34,271 nucleotides of DNA from Dethiosulfatibacter sp. (GTDB lineage: Bacteria > Bacillota_A > Clostridia > Tissierellales > Dethiosulfatibacteraceae): NCBI GenBank assembly GCA_019084435.1, contig JAHRFV010000052.1:1-34271 (forward strand), given 5' to 3'. Shown here piece by piece: positions 2 through 14,660 of this stretch (the first letter of the stretch is position 1; each line of letters begins with the position of its first letter). The notes below the pieces were generated by a model. The model made no database searches and was not told the origin of the DNA. It saw nothing but the letters and a program-made list of their open reading frames with translations. Position numbers and translations under genes: made by a program.

Positions 2-469
2 ACACTGGCTTTTATTAATGCGATGTCAAGCATTATGGTTCCCTTCACAGGGCAGAATTTCGGTGCAGGAAAAATAGACCGGATACGTGAAGGTATGAAA
101 ATCAGCAGGAAAATGATTTTTATATATGGCTTCGTTATATTAATTATTCTAAACTTGAAAGCAAGATTTATTGCACCGATATTCAATGACAGCATTGAGG
201 TGCAAAGAGTGACAATATTGTACCTTTCCATAATCCCTATCAGTTATGGATTTCAAGGTATGCTTCTGAATAATGTCGCAATACTGAATGCAATCAATAA
301 ACCGATTCAAGCTGCTGGATTATCTACTTTACAGATGACCGCGGTGTACCTGCCGATTGCCCTGATACTATCGAGTAATTTTGGAATATATGGTGTGTTT
401 GGCGCTTTGGTTGTCGCTTATGTTATTGGTGGCTTGGTTATGTACTGGTATACTTGGAAGAGCCTATAA
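2..469 (+). CDS. MATE-family multidrug/sodium antiporter, C-terminal part
   Basis: The window opens inside this gene: the frame is open from base 2 and an internal ATG at 23 is not the true start. The readable part (about 155 residues) has the MATE-type motif GQNFGAGKIDRIREG followed by four or five hydrophobic segments, matching the C-terminal half of a 12-helix MATE exporter. Such proteins use Na+ or H+ gradients to export cationic drugs or metabolites across the inner membrane. It ends with TAA at 467-469, and a terminator-like palindrome follows at once. The N-terminal two thirds lie outside the window, so substrate and operon context cannot be judged. The family call is fairly secure; the substrate is unknown. 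Confidence 0.82.
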   Translation, partial: TLAFINAMSSIMVPFTGQNFGAGKIDRIREGMKISRKMIFIYGFVILIILNLKARFIAPIFNDSIEVQRVTILYLSIIPISYGFQGMLLNNVAILNAINKPIQAAGLSTLQMTAVYLPIALILSSNFGIYGVFGALVVAYVIGGLVMYWYTWKSL

Positions 470-485
470 GTATTGAGTAATTTAA

Positions 486-519
486 GAGAATGCAAAATAT
501 TTTGCATTTTCTTTTTTTT
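486..519 (+). terminator. Probable intrinsic terminator after the MATE gene
   Basis: A perfect inverted repeat (489-508, core GCAAAATATTTTGC) is followed by a T-rich run to 519. It lies 17 bases after the MATE stop codon. The stem is AT-rich, so termination may be weak. The same palindrome core recurs at 2375-2388, where no terminator is expected, so it may mainly be a protein-binding site. Confidence 0.55.
489..508. promoter_or_regulatory. Candidate operator for the sigma-54 activator (self-regulation)
   Basis: This 20-bp perfect palindrome shares the 14-bp core GCAAAATATTTTGC with the site at 2374-2389 upstream of the ornithine promoter. Its right half overlaps the apparent -35 element (502-507) of the activator gene at 566. 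A dimeric Fis-type HTH protein bound here would be expected to block its own promoter. The shared sequence is observed; binding is inferred. Confidence 0.5.
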
Positions 520-530
520 AGCGGTATAAT
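502..530 (+). promoter_or_regulatory. Sigma-A promoter of the activator gene
   Basis: TTGCAT (502-507) and a consensus TATAAT (525-530) are separated by 17 bp. The expected start near 537 leaves a short leader with ribosome site AAGAGG at 552-557 before the ATG at 566. Confidence 0.6.
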
Positions 531-565
531 TGTTTTATAAAAATAAAACTTAAGAGGCTTATAAA

Positions 566-1966
566 ATGAACAAGTTAAAGGTCTATGAACAGATATTGGC
601 TAAGCTTGAAGAAGGTGTTCACGTGGTCAATGAAGAGGGCAAAACGGTGATTTATAATAAAGCCATGGCTGAGATTGAAGGTATGAAAGCAGAGGATGTT
701 ATTGAGGAAAATCTTCTCCAGGTCCTTCCAGCTTTGGGTTATGAAAGTACACATATGGAGGTGCTTAAGAAAGGTAAGCCTATTAAATCAAAGTATCAGG
801 AGTATATCTCGAAGCAAGGTAAAAAAATAGTGGCTGTAAACTCTACCTATCCGATTATGGAAAAGGGTAGAATTGTTGGCAGTTTTGAGATATCCAAAGA
901 CATAACCTATATGCGTAAAATGTCAGAAAAAATGCTGGAGCTATATTCGGAGGTTGTTGATTCCAAAAAAGGCTCATTTTCATTTAATGATATATTGGGT
1001 AATTCGAAAGAAATAATAGATATCATCGAGCAATGCAAGCAAGTAGCTGTCACTTCTTCCAATGTCCTTATAGTTGGCGATTCAGGTACTGGGAAGGAAA
1101 TGTTTGCCCAAAGCATCCACAACGCAAGCCTTAGAAGGGATAAGCCCATTGTTGCGGAAAATTGTGCAGCTATCCCAGAGAATCTTTTGGAAAGTATTTT
1201 GTTTGGAACTACTAAAGGCAGTTTCACAGGCGCAGAAAACAAAGAAGGATTATTGAAGCAAGTTGATGGTGGAACATTGATATTGGATGAAATCAATTCA
1301 ATGCCAATGTCTCTACAGTCTAAGATTTTAAGAGTTCTTGAAACCAAGAGATACAGACCCATCGGATCTAATGTGGAAAATCATGTCGATGTTAGGATAA
1401 TAGCCATTACAAATAAAGACCCTATTGAACTGGTAAAGGAAGGAAAGTTGAGAGAAGATCTGTTTTATCGGCTTAGTGTCATTAATATCAGAATACCAAA
1501 CTTACAGGAAAGAAAGGGTGATATAGAGTTTTTCACTGATTACTACATCAAGTACTATGAGGAGGTATTGAATAAAAAGCTTAAAGGGGTTTCCAGTGAG
1601 GTTTTGCGGTTTTTCAAAAAATATGAGTGGCCAGGGAATATAAGGGAGCTCAAGCACATCATTGAAGGCGCAATGAGTATGATGAAAGATGGGGAGACAT
1701 TGCAGCTGAAGCATATGCCTTATTATATCCAGAATATTCTTAATCTAAGTGCTGGTAATTCCAATTCTTTTTACACTGAAGATAAAGCTGAGAAAATTAC
1801 CAGCAAGCAAAGAACACTTGAAGAAGTCATGGGTGAAATTGAAAAGGATATCATCATTAAGTTGTTTCACGAAAATGGCAACAATATCAGTAAAACAGCT
1901 GAAATTTTGGGAATTAAAAGGCAGGGTCTTCAGTATAAGCTTAGAAAATATAGGATAGGAATATGA
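566..1966 (+). CDS. Sigma-54-dependent transcriptional activator (PAS, AAA+, Fis HTH)
   Basis: A 466-residue bacterial enhancer-binding protein. Residues 1-120 look like a PAS sensor domain. The AAA+ core spans about 140-380, with Walker A GDSGTGKE (171-178), the sigma-54 contact loop as GSFTGA (218-223, Ser replacing the usual Ala), Walker B LILDE (238-242) and the arginine-finger region LREDLFYRL. The C-terminus is a Fis-type helix-turn-helix (NISKTAEILGIKRQGLQYKL). The family uses ATP hydrolysis to open sigma-54 RNA polymerase complexes in response to a signal read by the N-terminal domain. A well-spaced -24/-12 promoter lies before ord at 2479, and the palindrome upstream of it also lies at this gene's own promoter. 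The protein is therefore the likely activator of ornithine degradation. The ligand is not known; ornithine or a product is a reasonable guess. Confidence 0.93.
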   Translation: MNKLKVYEQILAKLEEGVHVVNEEGKTVIYNKAMAEIEGMKAEDVIEENLLQVLPALGYESTHMEVLKKGKPIKSKYQEYISKQGKKIVAVNSTYPIMEKGRIVGSFEISKDITYMRKMSEKMLELYSEVVDSKKGSFSFNDILGNSKEIIDIIEQCKQVAVTSSNVLIVGDSGTGKEMFAQSIHNASLRRDKPIVAENCAAIPENLLESILFGTTKGSFTGAENKEGLLKQVDGGTLILDEINSMPMSLQSKILRVLETKRYRPIGSNVENHVDVRIIAITNKDPIELVKEGKLREDLFYRLSVINIRIPNLQERKGDIEFFTDYYIKYYEEVLNKKLKGVSSEVLRFFKKYEWPGNIRELKHIIEGAMSMMKDGETLQLKHMPYYIQNILNLSAGNSNSFYTEDKAEKITSKQRTLEEVMGEIEKDIIIKLFHENGNNISKTAEILGIKRQGLQYKLRKYRIGI

Positions 1967-2297
1967 TGGATCCTATCACCACAGCAAAAAATGACGCTAT
2001 CAGCACCGCTCCAGCTGCCGCGTCTTTTGCTTTCTCAGCACTTTCAAGGTATTCGTCGGTAATCATATCCACAATTTTCTCAATAGCAGTGTTAACAATC
2101 TCCAAAGTCAATACAAGGCATGAAATAATAAAAAGCATAATCCAGTGGATAGAAGAAATGCTCAACAATAATCCGACTACAGTCGTAAGAATCAGCATCA
2201 TCAATTGTATGCGAAAATTTCTTTGGGTTTTATAAACGTATGAGATACCTCTTGAAGCATACTTGAAAGAATTGATAATTTTTTTCAGGACAATCAC
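1941..2297 (-). CDS. dgkA: DgkA-family membrane lipid kinase (diacylglycerol or undecaprenol kinase)
   Basis: 118 residues, the usual length for prokaryotic DgkA. It has the signature LEIVNTAIEKIVD, a later KDAAAGAVLIAS stretch and three hydrophobic helices. In Gram-positive bacteria this family mostly phosphorylates undecaprenol in the cytoplasmic membrane, which feeds the cell-wall lipid carrier. The gene converges on the activator gene and overlaps its last 26 bases. The reading frame begins with GTG at 2297, but the ribosome site GTGGGG abuts that codon and the predicted transcript start is only about five bases upstream. Either the mRNA is nearly leaderless or a rare downstream start is used. 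The family is clear; the exact start and lipid substrate are not. Confidence 0.88.
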   Translation of the reverse strand: MIVLKKIINSFKYASRGISYVYKTQRNFRIQLMMLILTTVVGLLLSISSIHWIMLFIISCLVLTLEIVNTAIEKIVDMITDEYLESAEKAKDAAAGAVLIASFFAVVIGSIIFLSYIF

Positions 2298-2308
2298 CCC
2301 ACTGTATA

Positions 2309-2337
2309 ATCATAAATCCATTTTGCAGTAGTGTCAA
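2309..2337 (-). promoter_or_regulatory. Sigma-A promoter for the DgkA gene
   Basis: On the minus strand TTGACA (2332-2337) and TATGAT (2309-2314) are separated by 17 bp. The predicted start near 2302 is only a few bases from the GTG at 2297. Confidence 0.55.
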
Positions 2338-2373
2338 GAAATTAGAAAGAGCAAAAAAAGTGGCGTATTAAAA

Positions 2374-2389
2374 AGCAAAATATTTTGCT
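2374..2389. promoter_or_regulatory. Candidate enhancer (upstream activating site) for the ornithine operon
   Basis: The perfect 16-bp palindrome AGCAAAATATTTTGCT is centred about 124 bp before the expected sigma-54 transcription start, a normal distance for an enhancer-binding protein. Its 14-bp core is identical to that of the palindrome at the activator gene's own promoter. This is the strongest evidence for which protein binds here, but binding itself is inferred. Confidence 0.65.
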
Positions 2390-2478
2390 AATTTAAACAT
2401 AGAGAAAACGATTTCAGATCTAGAAGCTTAAGGACGTCTGGAATGAATGGGCCTGACAAGTCATTGAATATATGCAAG

Positions 2479-2495
2479 TTGGCATGGTTTATGCA
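2479..2495 (+). promoter_or_regulatory. Sigma-54 (-24/-12) promoter of the ornithine operon
   Basis: TTGGCATGGTTTATGCA has the invariant GG at 2481-2482 and GC at 2493-2494, exactly 12 bp apart as sigma-54 promoters require, and closely fits TGGCAC-N5-TTGCA. Transcription would start near 2505, about 90 bases before ord. No convincing sigma-A promoter was seen in the same interval on the plus strand. Confidence 0.75.
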
Positions 2496-2593: not shown

Positions 2594-3637
2594 ATGAAAG
2601 AGAACGTAAAGGTAATTATATGGGGATTGGGAGCTATGGGATCAGGTATAGCTGATATGCTTCTAAGCAAAAAAGGGGTTGAAATTGTAGGCGTTGTTGG
2701 AAGAGGAAAGAAAATAGGAACTAGCATGTATGACTATCTTAATACAGAAAAGGGAGATAGAAAAGATGTTTTATTGGGTTCATATGAGGATATTATTACT
2801 GAAAAAGCTGCAGATGTAGCTGTTTTATGTACCGATTCCTTCACTAAAGAAGCCTTTGACAAAATCAAGTACTGTCTTGAGAAAAAAATTAATGTTGTAT
2901 CAAGTGCAGAGGAAATGGCTTACCCATGGGCTCAGGAGCCTGAACTTTCTAAAAAGATAGACGATCTAGCAAAAGAGAATGGCGTATCGGTTTTGGGAAC
3001 TGGAATCAATCCCGGTTTAATAATGGATTTACTGGCTGTTTGCCTCACCGGTTGTATGACTGATGTGCAATCAATAGAGTGCAAGAGAGTAAACAGCTTA
3101 TCTCCATTTGGTCCAAAGGTTATGGAGGAACAGGGCGTTGGCATCACAAAAGAAGAATTTTTAGCAGGTGTTAAAAATGATACTTTATCTGGGCATGTCG
3201 GTTTTCCTGAATCTGTTCACATGATAGCTGATGCAATCGGTTGGAAAGTTGATAAATTCGAACAACAAATGGATCCCATTATGACAACTGTTGATAGAAA
3301 ATCTAAATACGGATTTGCAAAAGCAGGTAATGTCACAGGGGTCAATATGAGAGGGCAAGGATATGTCAATGGCGAACTGAAGATCGACATGAAGCATCCA
3401 CAGCAGATAGAGCCTGAAATGGAAGGAACCCAAACAGGTGACTATATTACTATAAAAGGAACACCTGAAGTTAACATGTCAATCAAACCAGAGGTAGATG
3501 GCGGTTTGGGAACAATTGCAATGTGCGTCAACATGATTCCACATATTATTAATGCTGCACCAGGATTGAAAACAATGATCGATCTGCCCGTACCGAGAGC
3601 TATCATGGGAGATTTTAGGGATTTTGTTAACAAATAA
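2594..3637 (+). CDS. ord: 2,4-diaminopentanoate dehydrogenase
   Basis: 347 residues. The N-terminus is a Rossmann NAD(P)-binding fold with GLGAMG at 11-16, and the protein resembles the dihydrodipicolinate-reductase-like family that includes Ord of Clostridium sticklandii. It oxidatively deaminates 2,4-diaminopentanoate to 2-amino-4-ketopentanoate, releasing ammonia and NAD(P)H. The start was set at ATG 2594, seven bases after GGAGGAG (2584-2590); a TTG four codons earlier lies inside the ribosome site. It is the first gene of the sigma-54 operon, directly before the thiolase subunits that use its product. Position and neighbours make the assignment firm. Confidence 0.93.
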   Translation: MKENVKVIIWGLGAMGSGIADMLLSKKGVEIVGVVGRGKKIGTSMYDYLNTEKGDRKDVLLGSYEDIITEKAADVAVLCTDSFTKEAFDKIKYCLEKKINVVSSAEEMAYPWAQEPELSKKIDDLAKENGVSVLGTGINPGLIMDLLAVCLTGCMTDVQSIECKRVNSLSPFGPKVMEEQGVGITKEEFLAGVKNDTLSGHVGFPESVHMIADAIGWKVDKFEQQMDPIMTTVDRKSKYGFAKAGNVTGVNMRGQGYVNGELKIDMKHPQQIEPEMEGTQTGDYITIKGTPEVNMSIKPEVDGGLGTIAMCVNMIPHIINAAPGLKTMIDLPVPRAIMGDFRDFVNK

Positions 3638-3650
3638 GAAGGAGGCAATG

Positions 3651-3968
3651 ATGAAAGCGAAAAAAGGAGATTGGGTCAGAATCTACAATATTCTTCTGAC
3701 ACCCGATCAACGAGCTCCGCAAGTTCCAGAGGACACCAGCAAAGTGCCGATGGAATTGTGGGATAAGGGCTTTTTAATAAACGAAACAGCTGAAATAGGT
3801 GAACAAGTAACTGTCGAAACCTATATTGGCAGGGAAATAAACGGGGAACTTATAGAGATTAACCCATCTTATGACCATGATTATGGCAAATGTGTCCCAG
3901 AACTGTTGTATATTGGTCGACAAGTAAAAAGCTTATTGAAAGAAGGTGAATCTGATGACCAGAGATAA
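3651..3968 (+). CDS. ortA: 2-amino-4-ketopentanoate thiolase, alpha subunit
   Basis: A 105-residue protein beginning MKAKKGDWVRIYNILL, the conserved opening of OrtA. With OrtB it cleaves 2-amino-4-ketopentanoate with coenzyme A to acetyl-CoA and alanine (reported as D-alanine). Two adjacent ATGs exist at 3648 and 3651. GGAGG at 3641-3645 is only two bases from the first and five from the second, so 3651 was preferred. It begins 13 bases after ord ends and overlaps ortB by 14 bases, which suggests coupled translation and equal dosage of the two subunits. No catalytic residues can be named by eye. Confidence 0.92.
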   Translation: MKAKKGDWVRIYNILLTPDQRAPQVPEDTSKVPMELWDKGFLINETAEIGEQVTVETYIGREINGELIEINPSYDHDYGKCVPELLYIGRQVKSLLKEGESDDQR

Positions 3969-5361
3969 CAGCTATAATGCGGTTATGGCTAGAAAATCAG
4001 AGATCATGAAAGCCTCTGTTGGGATTGACTATCAGGATTTTGAATCCGGTGGCATAGCCTTTGACTATGATAGAATGATGAGAGAAACCGGCTATTCTTT
4101 AGAAGAAATGATCAAAATTCAGAGTGAGGCTGGTGTCGGGAATACACCTTTGTTGGAGCTTAAAAATATTACAGCTTTAGCTAGAAAATACGCAGGACCC
4201 GGAAAGGGTGCTAGAATCTTTCTAAAGGATGAGGCATCCAATCCATCTGGCAGTTTCAAAGCCAGGAGAGCTGCTATCAGCGTTTACCATGCTAAGAAGC
4301 TGGGATACAAAGGTGTTATAGCAGCCACAAGCGGTAATTATGGTGCGGCGGTTGCCAGCCAAGCATGTATCAGAGGGTTGAATTGTATTATTGTCCAGGA
4401 ATGTTATGATTCCAGAGGAAAAGGGCAGCCTGAAATAGTAGAGAAAGCAAGGAAGTGCGAGGCATATGGCGCTGAAGTTGTTCAACTTTCTGTTGGGCCC
4501 GAGCTTTTTTATTATTTTCTGATGCTGCTGGAAGATACAGGTTACTTCAATGCCTCGTTATACACACCATTTGGTATAGCTGGAGTCGAAACCTTAGGCC
4601 ATGAATTGGCCGACCAGATGATGAAAAGAGAGGGAAGACTTCCAGATGCTGTCATAGCGACAAATGCTGGTGGTGGAAATCTGACAGGAACAGCTAGAGG
4701 ACTAATCAAATACGGAGCTGAAAATGTACAAATCATAGCAGCCAGTGTCAATTTGAAAGGTTTGCACATGGCTAGCGACATACAGTTCAACAAGAAGTCA
4801 TTCACCACAGGGCATACAGGATTTGGCATGCCATTCACAACATGGCCGGATCGTTCTGATGTACCTAGATCAGCAGGAAGACCATTGAGATATATGGATA
4901 GATATGTTACGGTAAATCAGGGTGAAGTTTTTTACACCACTGAAATGTTGGCACAGCTTGAGGGATTGGAACGAGGTCCGGCAGGGAATACTTCACTGGC
5001 AGCCGCTTTCTCCATAGCGCAAGAAATGGATAAAGATCAGATTCTAGTCGTTCAGGAAACAGAATACACTGGCGCTGGCAAACACATACAACCACAGCTG
5101 ACATTTGCTAGGGAGAATGGTATAGACATAATGGCAGGCAATCCAAAAGAAGAGATACCGGGCAAGAATATCATACTGCCTCATCATCCGGGATTGATAA
5201 AAGTTGTTGACTTGGATATGTTGACCTTGAGAGAATCATATGTGAAAAATTGCATAGAAAATACAGGAATTAAAAATCCGACAGATGATGATCTGGCCTT
5301 TATGGCAGCAGATTCCAAAACCAGTATTGAGTTTGTTAAATCTTTAGTAGAAAGGATATAA
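3955..5361 (+). CDS. ortB: 2-amino-4-ketopentanoate thiolase, beta subunit (PLP)
   Basis: 468 residues of the fold-type II PLP family (threonine synthase and cysteine synthase relatives). The motif SGSFKARRA places the cofactor-binding lysine at residue 102, and a glycine-rich phosphate loop TNAGGGNLTG follows later. The OrtA-OrtB pair carries out the CoA-dependent thiolytic cleavage that yields acetyl-CoA and alanine. The start is ATG 3955, eight bases after AAGG; an in-frame GTG at 3946 overlaps that ribosome site. Viewed alone it could be called a threonine synthase-like protein, but its place between ortA and oraS decides the role. Confidence 0.93.
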   Translation: MTRDNSYNAVMARKSEIMKASVGIDYQDFESGGIAFDYDRMMRETGYSLEEMIKIQSEAGVGNTPLLELKNITALARKYAGPGKGARIFLKDEASNPSGSFKARRAAISVYHAKKLGYKGVIAATSGNYGAAVASQACIRGLNCIIVQECYDSRGKGQPEIVEKARKCEAYGAEVVQLSVGPELFYYFLMLLEDTGYFNASLYTPFGIAGVETLGHELADQMMKREGRLPDAVIATNAGGGNLTGTARGLIKYGAENVQIIAASVNLKGLHMASDIQFNKKSFTTGHTGFGMPFTTWPDRSDVPRSAGRPLRYMDRYVTVNQGEVFYTTEMLAQLEGLERGPAGNTSLAAAFSIAQEMDKDQILVVQETEYTGAGKHIQPQLTFARENGIDIMAGNPKEEIPGKNIILPHHPGLIKVVDLDMLTLRESYVKNCIENTGIKNPTDDDLAFMAADSKTSIEFVKSLVERI

Positions 5362-5366
5362 ACCAA

Positions 5367-5744
5367 ATGAAAGGCTATTTGAAACGAGAAGATGATTTTG
5401 AGATTAGAAGACAACATCTTGATGGCTTATCGAATGAAGAACTAAAACAAAAATTTTGGGAGTTGGCGGAAAAAACTGTTGATCCACTATTGGAAATGGC
5501 AAGAACTCACACAAGTCCTTCAATTGAAAGATCTGTCCTACTGAGGATGGGGTTTTCAAGTATAGAAGCGAAGCCATTGGTCGATGGAGCTATCGATAGA
5601 GGTTTGATCGGAAAAGGTGTGGGGCATATTGTTTATAGAATATCAAAAGAAAAAAACATCCCCATTAGAGAAGCAGGTCTTCAGATGATTGAAGGAATGC
5701 ATTGGGATGACGCCTTGTCGATTTTCAAAGGAGGCCAAAAATAA
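5367..5744 (+). CDS. oraS: D-ornithine 4,5-aminomutase, small subunit
   Basis: 125 residues, close to the known small subunit of about 121. OraS binds OraE and is needed for the active heterodimer complex that isomerises D-ornithine to 2,4-diaminopentanoate. The protein is helical and charged with no membrane segment. It starts five bases after ortB ends, with only a weak GAAAGGA ribosome site about nine bases upstream. Its stop overlaps the oraE start as TAATG. The order oraS-oraE is that of the known cluster. Confidence 0.93.
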   Translation: MKGYLKREDDFEIRRQHLDGLSNEELKQKFWELAEKTVDPLLEMARTHTSPSIERSVLLRMGFSSIEAKPLVDGAIDRGLIGKGVGHIVYRISKEKNIPIREAGLQMIEGMHWDDALSIFKGGQK

Positions 5745-7954
5745 TGAAACATTATAATCCGAATGAAAAATTGGATATACACGATATTCTAAATGATCTG
5801 GAGAATTATAGGCCTAAGAGAAAAGGTTGGACATGGCGAAAAAAGGTAGATAATTTGGTGATGGGAGGACATGAGTACTCTGATTGCTCTGAACCACTTA
5901 AGAACTCCATAGGAATACCTGCCGCGGTACAATACTTTGACAATTTGAATCCTCAACCCCAGGAGACAATAACAACTGAGATTGCTTCGGGTAGATTTGA
6001 AGATGATATACGCAGAATGAGAATGGCAGCATGGCATGGAGCTGATCATATCATGGTTATCAGAACTGCAGGACAGTCACATTATGATGGGTTGATTGAA
6101 GGATCACCTCAAGGAATCGGTGGAATTCCTGTAACCAGAAAACAGGTTAGAGCACAAAGAAAGGCTTTGGATTTCATTGAAGATGAGGTGGGTAGACCCA
6201 TCAATTACCATTCATATGTATCAGGTGTCGCAGGCCCCGAAATTGCTGTCATGTTTGCAGAAGAAGGTGTCAATGGAGCGCATCAGGATCCTCAGTACAA
6301 CGTTTTATACAGGAACATCAACATGGTCAGATCTTTCGTGGATGCCGCAGAATCAAAAAAAGTCATGGCGCATGTCGATATGGCTCAAATTGACGGTGCC
6401 CATAACGCAAACGCCACAGCAAGAGACGCATGGAAGGTAATGCCTGAACTGATGGTTCAACACGCGATTAATTCCATGTATTCATTTAAGGCGGGAATGA
6501 AAAAGGAAAATATTGCTTTGTCAACAGTTCCTCCTTCTGCAGCTCCTGTTCCTTGCACAAAATATGACTTGCCTTATGCAGTTGCCCTGCGTGATTTATT
6601 TACAGAGTATAAAATGAGAGCGCAGCAGAACACAAAATACATCACATCATCATCAAGGGAAGCGACAGTGACGCACGTTATGAATATGCTGATATCAAAA
6701 ATGACAAGAGCCGATATACAGTCAACTATCACACCGGATGAGGGCAGGAATGTACCTTGGCACATGTATAATATAGAGGCTTGTGACACCGCCAGCCAGA
6801 CTTTAGTTGGTCTGGACGGATTGTTGGAGATGATTGACCTGAAGACTGAGGGTTTTCTACCGGAGAAGGTAAGGGAGTTAAAAGAGAGATCGGTACTTTA
6901 CTTCGAGGAACTTCTGGAGGTCGGTGGTTATTTCGAGGCTGTGGAAAAAGGGTTTTTTGTCGACTCAGGCATGTATCCTGAAAGAAACGGCGATGGAATC
7001 GGAAGAAAAATCCACGACGGTATCGGGGCAAACACTGTTTACAAGAGAGATGATGATTATTTTGCGCCGGTTACAGCACACTTCGGTTACAATAATGTAG
7101 CTCAATATGATAAAGATGCAGTAGATAATCCAGCCTCATTGATAGGTGGATGTACATTGGAAGATCCGGATAAGATTATTTTTATTGATGAATTAGACGA
7201 AAACGATAATGTGAACGTCAGAATGGTAGAATCAGAAAAGTACAGAAACACCAATATGATTAAACCTGAAATGGAATGGTTGGCTGATGGTACGGTAGTT
7301 GTAGAGATTTGCCTTCCAACATCAAAAAGAGTCGCTGAGTTCGCAGCTGTTGAATTTGCCAAAAAGATGAACCTGAGAGATCCTGAGGCTATTCATGTGG
7401 AAGTTCTCCATCCGTCAGAAGGTGTCAGAGTTCAGGTTAAAGGCAAGCTTGATTTTGATCTGGATATGTCAACGCTGGAAATACCGGAAGAGCCTGAAAT
7501 ACTCAGCTTCGATGAACTGTGGGATGAAATCGAAAAAAATCCCATGAAGGTTGTTGCCGCAACGGTAGGTCAGGATGAGCACTCTGTAGGATTGAGAGAA
7601 GTCATTGATATCAAACACGGTGGTATAGAAAAATTTGGCATAGAAGTTGAGTATCTGGGGACGTCATGTCCTTTGGAAAAACTGGTGGATGCTGCTATAG
7701 AACTAAATGCGGATGCTATAATGGCGTCAACAATTATTAGCCATGACGATGTTCATTACAAAAATATGAAAAGAATCCATGAGCTTTGTGTAGAAAAAGG
7801 CATCAGGGACAAAGTCATCATTATCACCGGAGGAACACAAGTCACTCCGGAAATAGCAGTGCAGAGCGGTGTTGACGCAGGCTTCGGAAAAGGCTCCAAG
7901 GGTATTCATGTTGCAACTTTTCTTGTGAAGAAGAGAAAGGAAATGCAGAAATGA
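5744..7954 (+). CDS. oraE: D-ornithine 4,5-aminomutase, large subunit (B12 and PLP)
   Basis: 736 residues. The N-terminal two thirds form the TIM-barrel part; the C-terminal third carries the cobalamin-binding motif DEHSVG with the cobalt-ligand histidine at 613. Lys624, eleven residues later, matches the Schiff-base lysine of the C. sticklandii enzyme (His618 and Lys629 there), so both cofactor residues are kept at the known spacing. Adenosylcobalamin makes the radical, and PLP carries the migrating amino group from carbon 5 to carbon 4 of D-ornithine. AAAGGAGG at 5727-5734 precedes the ATG. The stop overlaps the next start in ATGA, tying expression to the presumed reactivating factor. Confidence 0.96.
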   Translation: MKHYNPNEKLDIHDILNDLENYRPKRKGWTWRKKVDNLVMGGHEYSDCSEPLKNSIGIPAAVQYFDNLNPQPQETITTEIASGRFEDDIRRMRMAAWHGADHIMVIRTAGQSHYDGLIEGSPQGIGGIPVTRKQVRAQRKALDFIEDEVGRPINYHSYVSGVAGPEIAVMFAEEGVNGAHQDPQYNVLYRNINMVRSFVDAAESKKVMAHVDMAQIDGAHNANATARDAWKVMPELMVQHAINSMYSFKAGMKKENIALSTVPPSAAPVPCTKYDLPYAVALRDLFTEYKMRAQQNTKYITSSSREATVTHVMNMLISKMTRADIQSTITPDEGRNVPWHMYNIEACDTASQTLVGLDGLLEMIDLKTEGFLPEKVRELKERSVLYFEELLEVGGYFEAVEKGFFVDSGMYPERNGDGIGRKIHDGIGANTVYKRDDDYFAPVTAHFGYNNVAQYDKDAVDNPASLIGGCTLEDPDKIIFIDELDENDNVNVRMVESEKYRNTNMIKPEMEWLADGTVVVEICLPTSKRVAEFAAVEFAKKMNLRDPEAIHVEVLHPSEGVRVQVKGKLDFDLDMSTLEIPEEPEILSFDELWDEIEKNPMKVVAATVGQDEHSVGLREVIDIKHGGIEKFGIEVEYLGTSCPLEKLVDAAIELNADAIMASTIISHDDVHYKNMKRIHELCVEKGIRDKVIIITGGTQVTPEIAVQSGVDAGFGKGSKGIHVATFLVKKRKEMQK

Positions 7955-10466: not shown

Positions 10467-11369
10467 ATGACTGCGAAAACTAGTAAAACAACATATCTAT
10501 TGATAGCCAGCGTTCCTATTATATGGGGATTGACTCCAACCGTTATGAAAACTGCATTTGACTACATAAGCCCTTTTTTTATGAGCTTTCTGAGACTTAC
10601 TGTAGCATTTTTGACTTCATTTGTTTTTCTATATATTAGAGGAAAGTTAAATATTAGGGACATTCCCAGTTTATTCAGAAAAAATCTTATGATTATTGTT
10701 TTTTTTAATTTATTTCAGATATTTTACGCATTGGGTCTAAGAATTCTTCCTGTAGGAATTATAGGAATCGTTTTCGGTTTGCTACCAGTGACTGTATTAC
10801 TGGTCAATTCAGTGATGGGATTAGAAAAAGCCAGCTCAAGATTAATTGTAAGTGTTACAATGTCTCTGATTGGAGTCATCATCATAACAACCGCTGGCAA
10901 CGCAACTGAGTTTGATGTGATACCAGTTCAGGGTATAGTTTATGTCTTTGTGGCTCAGCTATTCTATGGACTATTCACTATCAATTCTAAAAAAAATGTT
11001 CAGACTAATAACCCAATAGCCATAACAACGGTTGCTACTATACCAACTTCAATTATTTTTTTCCTTTGGTCATTTGAAGAAGCAGTAAACTTCAACTATT
11101 CAACACTACCCATTCAAGTATGGATGAGTATAATTTTCTCAGGTGCCATAGCCATCAGTTTAGCCAATTCCCTTTGGATATGGGGTGCTGATCAGATTGG
11201 TAGCAACAGAGCGTCACTTTACAGCAATCTAAATCCAGTTGTTGCTTTAATTGGTGGATTTTTCATCCATAATGAATTATTGAATGGAGTACAAATGATA
11301 GGAATATTTGTCATCTTCACTGCTATTATTTTAAGCCAGATAAAATCAAAAGCACTCCAGATTAACTAA
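10467..11369 (+). CDS. EamA/DMT-family membrane transporter
   Basis: 300 residues with about ten hydrophobic helices in two EamA halves (IIWGLTPTVMKTAFDYISP near the start, then a second repeat from about residue 150), ending with a short basic tail. Family members often export or take up amino acids and other small metabolites across the inner membrane. GGGAG lies at 10457-10461, five bases before the ATG. It follows the ornithine operon on the same strand but has its own strong promoter, so a role in ornithine or alanine traffic is possible only by position. Clostridial ornithine clusters that I recall often carry an NhaC-type antiporter instead. Confidence 0.88.
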   Translation: MTAKTSKTTYLLIASVPIIWGLTPTVMKTAFDYISPFFMSFLRLTVAFLTSFVFLYIRGKLNIRDIPSLFRKNLMIIVFFNLFQIFYALGLRILPVGIIGIVFGLLPVTVLLVNSVMGLEKASSRLIVSVTMSLIGVIIITTAGNATEFDVIPVQGIVYVFVAQLFYGLFTINSKKNVQTNNPIAITTVATIPTSIIFFLWSFEEAVNFNYSTLPIQVWMSIIFSGAIAISLANSLWIWGADQIGSNRASLYSNLNPVVALIGGFFIHNELLNGVQMIGIFVIFTAIILSQIKSKALQIN

Positions 11370-11383
11370 TCAGAGTGTCTATC

Positions 11384-11517
11384 GATCAACAGGATTCTTG
11401 GGTTCAGGTGGCGTTTCAAACGCCATCTGAACCTTAGAAACCGTTATCCAGGGGCTTTACAGTGCTTATCTCCCACTTATAGAAGTGGGAGTCTTAGCAC
11501 TGTTAGTTATCGGATAA
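11384..11517 (-). repeat. 134-bp structured inverted repeat, copy 1 (argB end)
   Basis: This segment is the reverse complement of 16060-16193, with 8 differences in 134 by eye (about 94% identity) and sharp ends. Read in the argB direction it holds two long hairpins. The first pairs AGCACTGT-type arms around CTCCCACTT...AAGTGGGAG. The second pairs GGTTCAG-ATGGCG with CGCCATCTGAACC, joined by CCCCTGGATAACGG. The size and two-hairpin form resemble IS200/IS605 ends or the omega/HEARO RNAs of IscB and TnpB systems, but no transposase, tnpB or iscB is nearby and that identity is a guess. It contains the last 16 codons and stop of argB and probably ends its transcript. Confidence 0.9.
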
Positions 11518-12323
11518 AAGGTTGTTCCTACCGGTAAGTTTAGTTCAAGTTGTTCCAAAATATTTTTAATTGTACCATTGATGATATGAACACTTTCGAT
11601 GCCTGTATATAACGCATTAATGCAGTTCTTTACTTTTGGAATCATCCCTTCTGATACGATGCCATCATTTATGAGAAAATTACCATATGCAGGTGTTATA
11701 CTTGGAATAACACTTTTTTTGTTTTTGAAATCCATGTAAATACCATCAACATCAGTTATATAAATCAGCTTTCGGGCTTTAAGTGATGAAGCTATTGCAG
11801 AAGCAGCTGTATCGGCATTAATGTTATAGGATAGACCTGTTTCATCTGCGCCTATTGGAGATATTATCGGCACTATATTGTTACTTAACAACAATCGAAT
11901 GATTGACGTGTCAATAGAACAAATCTCGCCTACAAAGCCTAAATCCTGACCATCAGAAGCTTTCTTTTTACACTGAATAAGGTTATGATCCTTTCCACAT
12001 ATTCCAACTGCACTTAGCTTTTTAAGTTGCAATTCTGAGACAATTCTTTTATTATTTTTCCCAGAAAGAACCATTTCCACCACTTCTATTGTTTGCGAAT
12101 CAGTAATTCTGAGACCTTTTTCAAACTTGGATTCAATGCCGAGACGTTTTAGCATATGACTAATGTCATTTCCACCGCCATGTATAATGACGACAAAAAC
12201 ACCTGATGAGTGAAGTTGTTGTATCTGTTTGGCGAAGGCCTTTAAAGACTCATCACAATCCAGAATGGAGCCTCCTATTTTGATCACATAGATTTTTTCT
12301 TGTTCTAACACTTCCCCTATCAT
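11466..12323 (-). CDS. argB: Acetylglutamate kinase
   Basis: 285 residues of the amino-acid kinase family. It has KIGGS at 15-19, the substrate loop IIHGGGNDISH near 46-56, and NINADTAASAIA and YITDVDGIY later. It phosphorylates N-acetyl-L-glutamate in ornithine and arginine synthesis. Its start overlaps the argJ stop (ATGA). The family normally ends near a motif like GTxx; here VGTTFYP is followed by TNSAKTPTSISGR, encoded inside the 134-bp repeat. The last 16 residues therefore seem to come from an inserted element. This tail lies outside the known fold, so the enzyme is probably still active. Confidence 0.94.
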   Translation of the reverse strand: MIGEVLEQEKIYVIKIGGSILDCDESLKAFAKQIQQLHSSGVFVVIIHGGGNDISHMLKRLGIESKFEKGLRITDSQTIEVVEMVLSGKNNKRIVSELQLKKLSAVGICGKDHNLIQCKKKASDGQDLGFVGEICSIDTSIIRLLLSNNIVPIISPIGADETGLSYNINADTAASAIASSLKARKLIYITDVDGIYMDFKNKKSVIPSITPAYGNFLINDGIVSEGMIPKVKNCINALYTGIESVHIINGTIKNILEQLELNLPVGTTFYPITNSAKTPTSISGR

Positions 12324-13540
12324 GTTCTGTAGTCTCCATTTATTCGAATATAATCATATGACATATCACAGCCCCATCCTTTTGCTTCGCTATCACCATC
12401 CAGTAGATTAACCTGTATTTCAATGGAGTTACCCTTTAAAACCTCTGCTGCCAACTCTTCATTAAAGTGTAATGGTATACCGTTTTCTACAAGTCTTATG
12501 CTGCCAAATCTGCTTTTAATCATTAGAGAAACTCCCTCTGGGTTCATGTATGCACCTGAGTAACCCATGGCACAAATAATTCTTCCCCAGTTCGCATCTT
12601 CTCCAAAAAAGGCTGTTTTTACCAAGTTTGAGTTAATAATCGATTTGCATAACAATCGGGCATCATCCTTGGTTTTAGCTCCCTTAATTATCGTTTCGAG
12701 AGTTTTTGTAGCGCCTTCCCCGTCCTTAATAATCATTTTGGCTAATTCAATATTGATGATATTCAAGGCCTTACTGAAGGTTTGGTAATCTTCATTCTCT
12801 TCTATGATTTCGTCATTGCAAGCCAACCCATTGGCTAAAATACAAGCCATGTCATTCGTACTGGTATCGCCATCAACTGAAATCATGTTATAGGTATCTA
12901 TGATACTTTCAGACATTGCCTTCTGAAGCAATGATTGTGAAATATTCAGATCAGTCGTTATAAATGCTAGCATGGTAGCCATGTTAGGATGAATCATTCC
13001 GGAGCCTTTGGCCATAGCGCCAATTTTAATCAATTTTTTACCTATTGTAAATTGCAAAGAGACTTCCTTAGAAACTGTATCGGTTGTCATTATTGCAGAT
13101 GCTGCATCTATAGCGCCCTGACGGTCATCAGACAAGAAGATGCAGGACTTCTCTATACCTTCACTAATTATATCAACTGGTAACTGCACTCCAATTACGC
13201 CTGTAGAAGCAGTCAGTACAGAATTCACATCTAATTTAAGTGCACTGGCCAATGACTCTGCCATTCTCTGGTTGTTGATGATTCCCTGTTCGCCTGTGCA
13301 GGAATTAGCATGGCCGCTGTTGATGACAATTGCCTGAATCAGAGACTTATCATTTAACAGTTGCTTGTTTCTGATAACTGATGCGGCCTTTACTCGATTG
13401 GTTGTAAACACTGCGGCATATTTAGCCGGCACATTAGAATAGACAATAGCTAGGTCTCTTCTTTTGTATTTCATTCCCGTATATCGCCCGCACGCATAAA
13501 ATCCAGATGGTTCAGTTACCCCGTTATGGTTTATTTTCAT
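12320..13540 (-). CDS. argJ: Glutamate N-acetyltransferase / ornithine acetyltransferase
   Basis: 406 residues. The self-cleavage motif KGSGMIHPNMATMLAF places the cut between Ala188 and Thr189, and the new N-terminal Thr is the nucleophile. ArgJ moves acetyl from N-acetylornithine to glutamate, recycling the acetyl group; some forms also use acetyl-CoA. The ribosome site lies in AAGGAGGACAAAATG just before the start. It lies 15 bases after argC and overlaps argB by four, forming argC-argJ-argB. Whether it is mono- or bifunctional cannot be told from sequence alone. argD and argF are not in the window. Confidence 0.95.
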   Translation of the reverse strand: MKINHNGVTEPSGFYACGRYTGMKYKRRDLAIVYSNVPAKYAAVFTTNRVKAASVIRNKQLLNDKSLIQAIVINSGHANSCTGEQGIINNQRMAESLASALKLDVNSVLTASTGVIGVQLPVDIISEGIEKSCIFLSDDRQGAIDAASAIMTTDTVSKEVSLQFTIGKKLIKIGAMAKGSGMIHPNMATMLAFITTDLNISQSLLQKAMSESIIDTYNMISVDGDTSTNDMACILANGLACNDEIIEENEDYQTFSKALNIINIELAKMIIKDGEGATKTLETIIKGAKTKDDARLLCKSIINSNLVKTAFFGEDANWGRIICAMGYSGAYMNPEGVSLMIKSRFGSIRLVENGIPLHFNEELAAEVLKGNSIEIQVNLLDGDSEAKGWGCDMSYDYIRINGDYRT

Positions 13541-13555
13541 TTTGTCCTCCTTGGT

Positions 13556-14599
13556 CTAAACTGGAAACATGGATACTCGATCCAGTCCAGTTTCTTCTTT
13601 AAGCTCAAACATGATATTCATATTCTGCACTGCTTGACCCGCCGCGCCTTTTATCAGATTATCCAATGCTGACGTTATTATGATTTGGTTTGTTCTTTCG
13701 TCAAGAAATACTCCGATATCAATATAATTTGAACCCTTAACCCACTTTGTCTCAGCTGGGATTCCTTTTGGCAAAAGCCTGATAAATTTGTCATTGCCAT
13801 AGGCATCAATGAATGCATCTCTTATTCTGTCATAATTCAGAAGTTGATTAGGTTTACAATAGATGGTTGTTAGAATACCCCTATTAACCGGTATGAGATG
13901 TGGCACAAAACTCAACTGGATTTTTTGTCCTGCCAGAAGTGAAAGGTTCTCTTCTATTTCAGGGGTATGTCTGTGCCCTAAAGGATTATATGAGTTCATA
14001 TTTTCGTTGCATTCGGAATAATGAGTGGACAGACTTAAAGACCTGCCAGCACCGGTTATACCGGATTTGGCATCAATCACAATTGAATCAAGATCAATCA
14101 GAGAATTGATTACTAGAGGTGCAAGACTTAATATGCTACATGTCGTGTAGCAGCCTGGATTAGCTATGAGATTAGTTTTTCTGATAGCTTCCCTATTCAG
14201 TTCACACAGTCCATATACAGCTGAATCAATGAGATCTGGAGTGGGATGGTTCGAATTATACCATTGATTATATACATCTACATTTGTCAATCTGAAATCA
14301 GCGCCTAAGTCGATTACTCTCATTTTTTCGAGAATCTCTTTGCTCAACAAGTTTGAAGAGTGACCATGGGGCAATGCGATAAATAGTACATCAATGTCAA
14401 AATCAATTATATTGGTTGGTGTTTCTATGCATTCAATATTCATTCGATGATAGTAGTTCATGTATAACTCCAAATAGTCTCTCCCAAAATTAGAGGATGA
14501 GGATATGAAGCTAATATCTACATCTGGGTGCTCGAGAAGCAATCTAACCAATTCCTGCCCTGCATACCCCGTTCCTCCAATTATTCCTGCTTTAATCAT
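13556..14599 (-). CDS. argC: N-acetyl-gamma-glutamyl-phosphate reductase
   Basis: 347 residues. The NADPH-binding motif GGTGYAGQELVRLL is at the N-terminus, and the catalytic Cys lies in ANPGCYTT. It reduces N-acetylglutamyl phosphate to the semialdehyde, the step after ArgB. The start was placed at ATG 14599 (MIKAGIIGG) because GGAGG lies eight bases upstream; an in-frame upstream ATG would add 14 residues with no family support. It is the first gene of the argCJB operon, with a strong promoter and a palindromic candidate ArgR site just upstream. Confidence 0.95.
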   Translation of the reverse strand: MIKAGIIGGTGYAGQELVRLLLEHPDVDISFISSSSNFGRDYLELYMNYYHRMNIECIETPTNIIDFDIDVLFIALPHGHSSNLLSKEILEKMRVIDLGADFRLTNVDVYNQWYNSNHPTPDLIDSAVYGLCELNREAIRKTNLIANPGCYTTCSILSLAPLVINSLIDLDSIVIDAKSGITGAGRSLSLSTHYSECNENMNSYNPLGHRHTPEIEENLSLLAGQKIQLSFVPHLIPVNRGILTTIYCKPNQLLNYDRIRDAFIDAYGNDKFIRLLPKGIPAETKWVKGSNYIDIGVFLDERTNQIIITSALDNLIKGAAGQAVQNMNIMFELKEETGLDRVSMFPV

Positions 14600-14615
14600 T
14601 TGTTTGCCTCCAGTG

Positions 14616-14640
14616 TGTAGAATAATATTTTTATTATACA
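14616..14640. promoter_or_regulatory. Candidate ArgR operator over the argC promoter
   Basis: An imperfect AT-rich palindrome with TGTA and TACA outer arms around AATA...TATT covers the -10 box and probable start of argC. ArgR boxes are AT-rich dyads of this general type, placed to repress biosynthesis when arginine is plentiful. The match to a strict ARG box is only partial. Confidence 0.35.
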
Positions 14641-14660
14641 ACTATCAAATATAAAGTCAA
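14633..14660 (-). promoter_or_regulatory. Sigma-A promoter of argCJB
   Basis: On the minus strand TTGACT (14655-14660) and a consensus TATAAT (14633-14638) are separated by 16 bp, about 26 bases before the argC ribosome site. Confidence 0.7.

What the first reader, a model, noticed from the sequence alone, without database searches (positions are those of the whole stretch)
489..2495. Self-contained sigma-54 circuit for ornithine degradation
An enhancer-binding protein gene (566-1966), a -24/-12 promoter with exact 12-bp GG-GC spacing before ord (2479-2495), and a 16-bp palindrome about 124 bp upstream of the start form a complete set. The palindrome core GCAAAATATTTTGC also occurs at the activator's own promoter, which identifies the likely binding protein and motif. 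The promoter and motif are read directly; the regulatory link is inferred from sigma-54 biology.
Basis: partly seen in the sequence, partly recalled or inferred. Interest (0 to 1): 0.72.

Follow-up and report, generated by a model that had tools for sequence, protein, structure and literature searches.

The report
Ornithine-degradation switch with swapped activator
A bacterial gene set for breaking down ornithine carries its own activator gene and the DNA sites that activator should bind; the design is already known from related bacteria, but here the activator protein appears to come from a different lineage while the DNA sites stayed the same.

Summary
The window has an enhancer-binding protein gene (566-1966), a -24/-12 promoter (2480-2495) before a complete ord-to-orr operon, and two exact copies of GCAAAATATTTTGC (492-505, 2375-2388). 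In 53 loci with such a gene beside ord (52 fetched plus the window), GCAA-N6-TTGC lies upstream of ord in 47 (89 sites; 0.72 expected), mostly as pairs 20-24 bp apart. The circuit type is known: OrdR/sigma-54 control of ord was predicted in 2019, and the C. difficile -24/-12 promoter was mapped in 2020. Two points I did not find in print. First, the activator is not an OrdR ortholog: it groups with activators of which several sit beside transporter genes (100/99 support; AU p 0.002), while the window's Ord and OraE nest among OrdR-locus enzymes, so the protein seems exchanged and the DNA site kept. Second, the copy at the activator's own promoter supplies its -35 hexamer, suggesting autorepression; in four loci it is also terminator-like. 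"Self-contained" is loose: in relatives the sigma-54 gene lies elsewhere. No experiment was possible.

The parts
2..469 (+). 3' end of a MATE-family transporter gene (runs off the window's left end), upstream neighbour
   Evidence: Pfam MatE
484..513 (+). terminator-like hairpin followed by a T run, containing the activator-promoter palindrome
   Evidence: 480-520 folds at -13.6 kcal/mol, z -4.8
489..508 (.). perfect 20-bp palindrome AATGCAAAATATTTTGCATT, putative operator of the activator gene (14-bp core 492-505)
   Evidence: near the same position in L001, L002, L003; L004 and L099 keep a copy over the -35 region
501..506 (+). TTTGCA, right half of the palindrome, inferred -35 hexamer (4 of 6 to TTGACA) of the activator's sigma-70-type promoter
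525..530 (+). TATAAT, inferred -10 hexamer of the activator promoter, 18-bp spacer
566..1966 (+). sigma-54 enhancer-binding protein (PAS, AAA+, HTH_8), RocR-like, outside the OrdR clade
1941..2297 (-). diacylglycerol kinase-family gene between activator and ord; also present in L001 and L002
   Evidence: Pfam DAGK_prokar; relatives
2351..2364 (.). second, previously unnoticed UAS-like site GCAAAAAAAGTGGC, centre 24 bp upstream of the perfect site
   Evidence: identical in L001 and L002
2374..2389 (.). perfect UAS palindrome AGCAAAATATTTTGCT (core 2375-2388)
2480..2495 (+). -24/-12 sigma-54-type promoter TGGCATGGTTTATGCA; start of transcription inferred near 2506
   Evidence: a loose match within 200 bp of ord in 53 of 53 activator-ord loci
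2594..3637 (+). ord, 2,4-diaminopentanoate dehydrogenase
   Evidence: NCBIfam NF040740, 530.5 bits against cut-off 400
3648..3968 (+). ortA (ORF listed from TTG 3624; ATG 3648 follows GGAGG)
   Evidence: NF040739; start read from sequence
3946..5361 (+). ortB
   Evidence: NF040741
5367..5744 (+). oraS
   Evidence: Pfam OAM_alpha; no NCBIfam match
5744..7954 (+). oraE
   Evidence: NF040743
7951..9327 (+). or-4, GlmL-related protein
   Evidence: NF040744
9324..10406 (+). orr, ornithine racemase
   Evidence: NF040742

Best explanation
This is an ornithine-responsive sigma-54 switch. Shown by sequence and comparison: an activator gene, a tandem pair of UAS sites (2351-2364, 2375-2388) centred about 148 and 124 bp upstream of the inferred start, a -24/-12 promoter, and the full oxidative ornithine-degradation operon; the same layout recurs beside ord in many genomes. 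Inferred: the PAS domain responds to ornithine or a close metabolite; activator dimers bind the two UAS sites on one face of the helix, assemble, contact sigma-54 polymerase by looping, and open the ord promoter. Inferred: binding to the copy at 489-508 covers the -35 hexamer of the activator's own promoter and represses it. Supported by trees: the activator is not the OrdR ortholog but belongs to a RocR-like clade in which several members sit beside amino-acid or NhaC/ArcD-type transporter genes. It took over the ord operon while the binding motif and promoter layout stayed the same.
For: UAS motif within 420 bp of ord in 47 of 53 loci, 89 sites against 0.72 shuffled; 40 matches in 884,991 bp elsewhere in the same loci. 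Relaxed motif in 52 of 53 and at least two sites in 48 of 53; 44 of 51 spacings are 20-24 bp and 4 are 72-74 bp, near whole helical turns; loose -24/-12 match in 53 of 53. One sigma-54 gene in each of 3 related genomes. At the activator promoter 10 copies were scored (9 of 53 loci plus L099): 8 of 10 have a -10-like hexamer of at least 5/6 at a 15-19 bp spacer, against 8 of 89 ord UAS copies and 136 of 1060 random upstream positions. Activator trees: OrdR rows one clade (99*; 100/99*), window type with its other kin 100* and 100/99*, AU p 0.003 and 0.002 against window type plus OrdR. Ord and OraE trees reject the OrdR-locus enzymes as a clade without the window (AU p 3.7e-5 and 1e-50). Two kin of the activator also have paired UAS sites and a -24/-12 element before an NhaC/ArcD-like gene (L175, L176). 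B. subtilis RocR acts with ornithine/citrulline and is said to be negatively autoregulated (passages of PMC4348106 and PMC4813224).
Against: No experiment. 42 of 53 activators show no exact copy in the up to 150 bp upstream that was searched (two had less sequence), so this autoregulation is not general. In L045 and L047 the copy lies inside the activator's coding sequence. L004's -35 hexamer under the site fits poorly, 2 of 6. The window's second UAS has a TGGC half-site, not TTGC. L048 of 53 has no relaxed UAS; L032 has a related activator about 7 kb from ord and no UAS. Recognition-helix residues differ: RQGLQYK in 5 of 5 window-type rows, RQTLQHK in 21 of 28 OrdR rows. Of 6 kin loci fetched, L175 and L176 have UAS pair plus promoter, L178 one relaxed site, and L177, L179, L180 none beside the activator. 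In a first, larger tree with long branches, activators from other ord loci fell into several groups mixed with proteins of unknown context. L003's OraE groups away from the window's. C. difficile ord is 'NR' in the sigL column of the table seen.
Confidence: 0.82

Rival explanations
1. The palindrome at 484-513 is only an intrinsic terminator of the upstream MATE gene; it is not an operator, and its likeness to the ord site is chance.
For: Stable hairpin followed by a T run in the window, L001 and L003 (folded), and the same palindrome and T run read in L002; it lies just behind the MATE stop codon.
Against: L099 keeps the palindrome over a -35/TATAAT pair with no T run behind it, and its upstream gene is of a different family. 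L004 has a separate terminator-like hairpin further upstream (read in the sequence printed, not folded) and still carries GCAAAATCTCTTGC over the -35 region. The exact 14-mer equals the ord UAS; a terminator needs no such sequence. Both roles may be real together.
Confidence: 0.12
2. The activator is simply a fast-evolving OrdR ortholog; the tree artificially separates it.
For: Same position, UAS and target as OrdR. The trees are single-protein with hand-picked rows, and L004's place within the clade is unsure (83/60). The larger first tree was unruly.
Against: AU tests reject window type plus OrdR as one clade in two row sets (p 0.003, 0.002). No window-type row was flagged as a long branch in those two. 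The helix signature RQGLQYK is shared with 6 of 10 other rows of its clade and 0 of 28 OrdR rows. The enzymes give the opposite placement.
Confidence: 0.15
3. Another regulator binds the palindromes and the adjacent activator acts elsewhere.
For: Binding was not tested. The related genomes G001 and G002 have 26 and 17 matches to the activator.
Against: Adjacent activator, relaxed UAS and -24/-12 occur together in 52 of 53 loci, and 14 of 15 full-length ord loci with neither adjacent activator nor UAS lack -24/-12 as well. Activators of the same clade keep paired UAS sites when they sit before another gene (L175, L176).
Confidence: 0.06

Closest known systems
OrdR/sigma-54 regulon of Clostridiales (Nie et al. 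2019, PMC6615313; abstract, passages and section 7 seen; Fig. 3 and Table S3 with the motif not seen)
   Same: Activator beside ord, -24/-12 promoter, UAS, same operon; Geosporobacter ferrireducens, one of its five species, has GCAAATATATTTGC twice, 24 bp apart, in L046
   Different: The window activator lies outside the OrdR clade. The OrdR entry in Table 1 lists the ord operon and not ordR itself, whereas here a site sits on the activator's own promoter. The operon is followed by an EamA gene where the literature lists nhaC.
C. difficile ord promoter (PMC7438776, passages seen)
   Same: A -24/-12 promoter TTGGCACGATTTATGCTTT mapped before ord and assigned to CD0441/OrdR
   Different: Mapped there, inferred here; the window's sequence is TTGGCATGGTTTATGCA
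Bacillus subtilis RocR (PMC4813224, PMC4348106, PMC4941409, passages seen)
   Same: NtrC/NifA-type activator for arginine/ornithine catabolism with SigL, acting with ornithine or citrulline, negative autoregulation
   Different: Different pathway (roc genes). Bacillus-type rows form a separate clade. Its UAS sequence could not be compared here.

Membership tests
sigma-54 enhancer-binding protein (NtrC/NifA type) | AAA+ sigma-54 activation domain with GAFTGA-type loop and Fis-type HTH | tested here: met
   Pfam domains; GSFTGA and Walker A read in the translation
sigma-54-dependent promoter | -24/-12 element with GG and GC 12 bp apart, conserved among orthologous operons | tested here: met
   2480-2495; a loose match in 53 of 53 loci
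sigma-54-dependent promoter | mapped transcription start and dependence on sigma-54 | not testable with these tools
   none for the window; promoter mapped for C. difficile ord, sigL effect 'NR' there
OrdR orthologous group | beside ord, with the UAS motif shared by OrdR loci | tested here: met
OrdR orthologous group | common ancestry with the OrdR of Geosporobacter ferrireducens to the exclusion of other activators | tested here: not met
   AU p 0.003 and 0.002
Bacillus RocR | groups with Bacillus-type RocR | tested here: not met
   4 Bacillus-type rows and one ornithine-aminotransferase-linked activator form a separate clade, 100/100
Bacillus RocR | ornithine/citrulline as inducer | not testable with these tools
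   needs experiment
negatively autoregulated activator | operator overlapping its own promoter | tested here: inconclusive
   TTTGCA -35 inside the palindrome; no expression data
intrinsic terminator | hairpin followed by a U tract | tested here: met
   484-513; termination itself not tested

The most novel reading that the evidence does not exclude
A regulator exchange with the DNA left unchanged: the ord operon lost its OrdR and came under a paralogous activator, from a lineage in which several members sit beside transporter genes, that reads the same GCAA-N6-TTGC enhancer. In this lineage one copy of the enhancer became a three-in-one element at the activator gene (operator, -35 hexamer, and terminator of the gene before it).
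Probability: 0.55. Interest if true: 0.48.

Novelty: new variant of a known kind. Interest (0 to 1): 0.36.

Why it matters
It turns a single-genome guess into a motif supported across 53 loci (GCAA-N6-TTGC, paired, helically spaced) for sigma-54 control of ornithine breakdown. It also offers a natural case in which an activator protein seems to have been exchanged while its enhancer was kept, useful for asking how activators within one family keep or change DNA specificity. The ornithine pathway itself is of medical interest: a 2022 paper reports that it supports C. difficile colonization (PMC8803604; listing and passages seen).

Tried and rejected
A viral-contig scan with the activator gave no relative. 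The window's own genome is not held, so genome-wide counts come from relatives.

A wider regulon was looked for: GCAAWWWWWWTTGC gives 6, 5 and 4 places in G001, G002 and G006. Of the places outside the cluster, wider regions were fetched and genes listed for three (L153, L154, L155): one lies between an Hsp18-like and a DNA polymerase IV gene with no -24/-12 pattern in the region, and two lie inside ORFs. The others were not pursued. Whether G001 or G002 also hold an OrdR-clade activator was not settled: only some of their activators were fetched, and of these L100 and L103 (both G001) were placed in a tree, outside the OrdR clade.

A further GCAA-N6-TTGC at 161-174 lies in the MATE coding sequence; L001 and L002 have one in their MATE coding region too and L003 does not in the part held, so I do not count it.

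The idea that ord-adjacent activators are one ortholog group was rejected by the trees. The first tree (171 rows) had long branches flagged and scattered the ord-locus activators over several groups (at least 12 label changes forced by starred branches), so smaller sets were built. Rows dropped: L013 (truncated). By hand I took 28 and 16 of the 48 activators of the 53 loci that are not window type (53 less the window and L001-L004). For L003 the first Ord tree used the ord copy next to the activator; it was repeated with the second copy. One search used 28 Ord and 27 OraE rows from OrdR-type loci and 5 window-type rows each.

Full report
What is there. The window carries, left to right, the end of a MATE-family gene, an enhancer-binding protein gene at 566-1966, a diacylglycerol kinase gene on the other strand (1941-2297), and a complete oxidative ornithine-degradation operon (ord, ortA, ortB, oraS, oraE, or-4, orr). 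Five of the seven operon genes pass the cut-off of an NCBIfam equivalog model, orr that of an 'exception' model, and oraS is named by Pfam OAM_alpha. The activator has PAS, AAA+ sigma-54-activation and Fis-type HTH domains, and Walker A and GSFTGA motifs.

The DNA sites. GCAAAATATTTTGC occurs exactly at 492-505 and 2375-2388 and nowhere else in the window; none appears in 300 shuffles. In the two closest genomes (G001, G002) the exact 14-mer occurs only at these two places. The -24/-12 element TGGCATGGTTTATGCA is at 2480-2495. By itself it is not striking (8 hits with up to 1 mismatch, 5.55 expected), but its place is conserved.

Conservation. An alignment of Ord proteins fetched 80 ord loci (the best 80 of 534). 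With the window, 53 of 81 have a related activator upstream in the same direction within 2.6 kb. In those 53, exact GCAA-N6-TTGC lies within 420 bp of ord in 47 loci (89 sites; mean of 50 shuffles 0.72, largest 3), against 40 in 884,991 bp elsewhere in the same loci. With the relaxed form GCMA-N6-TKGC in up to 560 bp, 52 of 53 have one site and 48 of 53 have two; 44 of 51 spacings are 20-24 bp and 4 are 72-74 bp; a loose -24/-12 match within 200 bp of ord is present in 53 of 53; the proximal site is a median 135 bp from the -12. L048 is the one locus without a relaxed site. Of the 28 loci without an adjacent activator, 11 still have the exact UAS. Five of these 11 have a related activator elsewhere in the locus (L015, L024, L061, L067, L079), four are limited by contig ends (L007, L033, L064, L065), and two (L011, L076) show no activator in the 10 kb held on each side. 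The other 17 have no UAS; two of them are cut short (L053, L055), and 14 of the remaining 15 also lack a -24/-12 match. One of those 15, L032, does have related activators farther off in the locus.

Already known. Nie et al. 2019 (PMC6615313: abstract, passages, section 7) predicted control of ord-ortBA-oraSEF-orr-nhaC by sigma-54 and an activator named OrdR in five species, with a UAS motif called distinct. I could not see their figure or tables with the motif. A 2020 C. difficile study (PMC7438776, passages) mapped a -24/-12 promoter before ord and assigned it to OrdR; its table gives 'NR' for ord in the sigL mutant column. My paper searches listed nothing that by title or by the part of the abstract shown reports OrdR autoregulation or another activator lineage at ord; the library holds open-licence papers only, and I opened six of those listed.

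Which activator it is. In a tree of 59 activators, 28 from other ord loci form one clade (99*), including Geosporobacter ferrireducens, one of the five 2019 species. The window activator and those of L001-L004 lie elsewhere (100*), with the database proteins P0022, P0033, P0036 and P0039. Holding window type and OrdR together is rejected (AU p 0.003). A more careful tree of 43 rows agrees: OrdR 100/99, window type plus eight kin 100/99, AU p 0.002. In L175, L176 and L179 the activator sits just before an NhaC/ArcD-type gene; in L175 and L176 there are paired GCAA-N6-TTGC sites and a -24/-12 element between them. L178 faces an amino acid carrier gene with one relaxed site, L180 a D-serine ammonia-lyase gene without a site beside it, and L177 shows no such partner. 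P0036, P0039 and P0033 themselves were not located in a genome. The enzymes tell a different story: the window's Ord and OraE sit among those of OrdR-type loci (those enzymes as a clade without the window rejected, AU p 3.7e-5 and 1e-50). The simplest reading is that an activator of this other lineage replaced OrdR here while the enhancer motif stayed. L003 complicates this: it has the window-type activator and two tandem ord copies, but its OraE groups elsewhere, so exchange may have happened more than once. The direction of change is inferred. An earlier 171-row tree with flagged long branches scattered the ord-locus activators over several groups; the window type was again apart from Geosporobacter's.

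The copy at the activator's own promoter. In the window its right half, TTTGCA, lies 18 bp before TATAAT. Ten such copies were scored (window, L001-L005, L008, L018, L034, and L099 from a genome of the same genus as G001): 8 of 10 have a -10-like hexamer of 5/6 or better, against 8 of 89 ord UAS copies and 136 of 1060 random upstream positions. Several of the ten are close relatives, so they are fewer than ten independent cases, and L004's -35 hexamer fits poorly (2 of 6). In the window, L001, L002 and L003 the palindrome is followed by a T run; window, L001 and L003 were folded and form a strong hairpin. In L099 there is no T run and the upstream gene is of another family; in L004 a separate terminator-like hairpin, read by eye, lies further upstream. 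Promoter overlap is therefore the shared property and the terminator an addition. 42 of 53 loci show no exact copy in the up to 150 bp upstream searched, so this feedback is not general. Negative autoregulation of B. subtilis RocR is a precedent (PMC4813224, passage).

How it most likely works. Ornithine or a close metabolite relieves the PAS-domain restraint (inferred from RocR); dimers on the paired UAS sites assemble and open the sigma-54 promoter; the site over the activator's -35 limits the activator's level. Sigma-54 is encoded once in each of three related genomes, on other contigs, so the circuit is local but not self-contained.

Verdict. Observation confirmed and interpretation supported. 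The circuit type is known; the activator exchange and the operator/-35/terminator overlap make it a modest new variant.

Noticed in passing
window 11466-14641: Amino acid kinase, ArgJ and semialdehyde dehydrogenase genes (an argB, argJ, argC-like set; gene names are my reading of the Pfam hits) on the minus strand converge on the ord operon: ornithine synthesis facing ornithine breakdown.
   Followed up: no
window 10467-11369: An EamA-family transporter follows orr where nhaC is listed for the OrdR operon in the literature; it may move ornithine or its products.
   Followed up: no
L142 6350-8077: Three GCAA-N6-TTGC sites flank a related activator gene, with a -24/-12 element before a lysine 2,3-aminomutase-family gene: the same motif used beside another amino-acid gene.
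   Followed up: partly
L003 2338 and 3431: Two tandem ord copies of different lineages (69% and 84-85% identical to the window's); a -24/-12 pattern was seen only before the first.
   Followed up: partly
L045 and L047, activator 5' coding region: The exact 14-mer GCAAAATATTTTGC lies inside the start of the activator's coding sequence, encoding Q-N-I-L by my reading: coding chance or an intragenic operator.
   Followed up: no
L137 6058-11969: A dispersed version of the system: -24/-12 patterns at the start of an orr-like ORF and before an NhaC-type gene and a divergent ord (48%), with GCAA-N6-TTGC sites before the last two.
   Followed up: partly
window 161-174: A further GCAA-N6-TTGC match inside the MATE coding sequence; probably coding.
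   Followed up: partly
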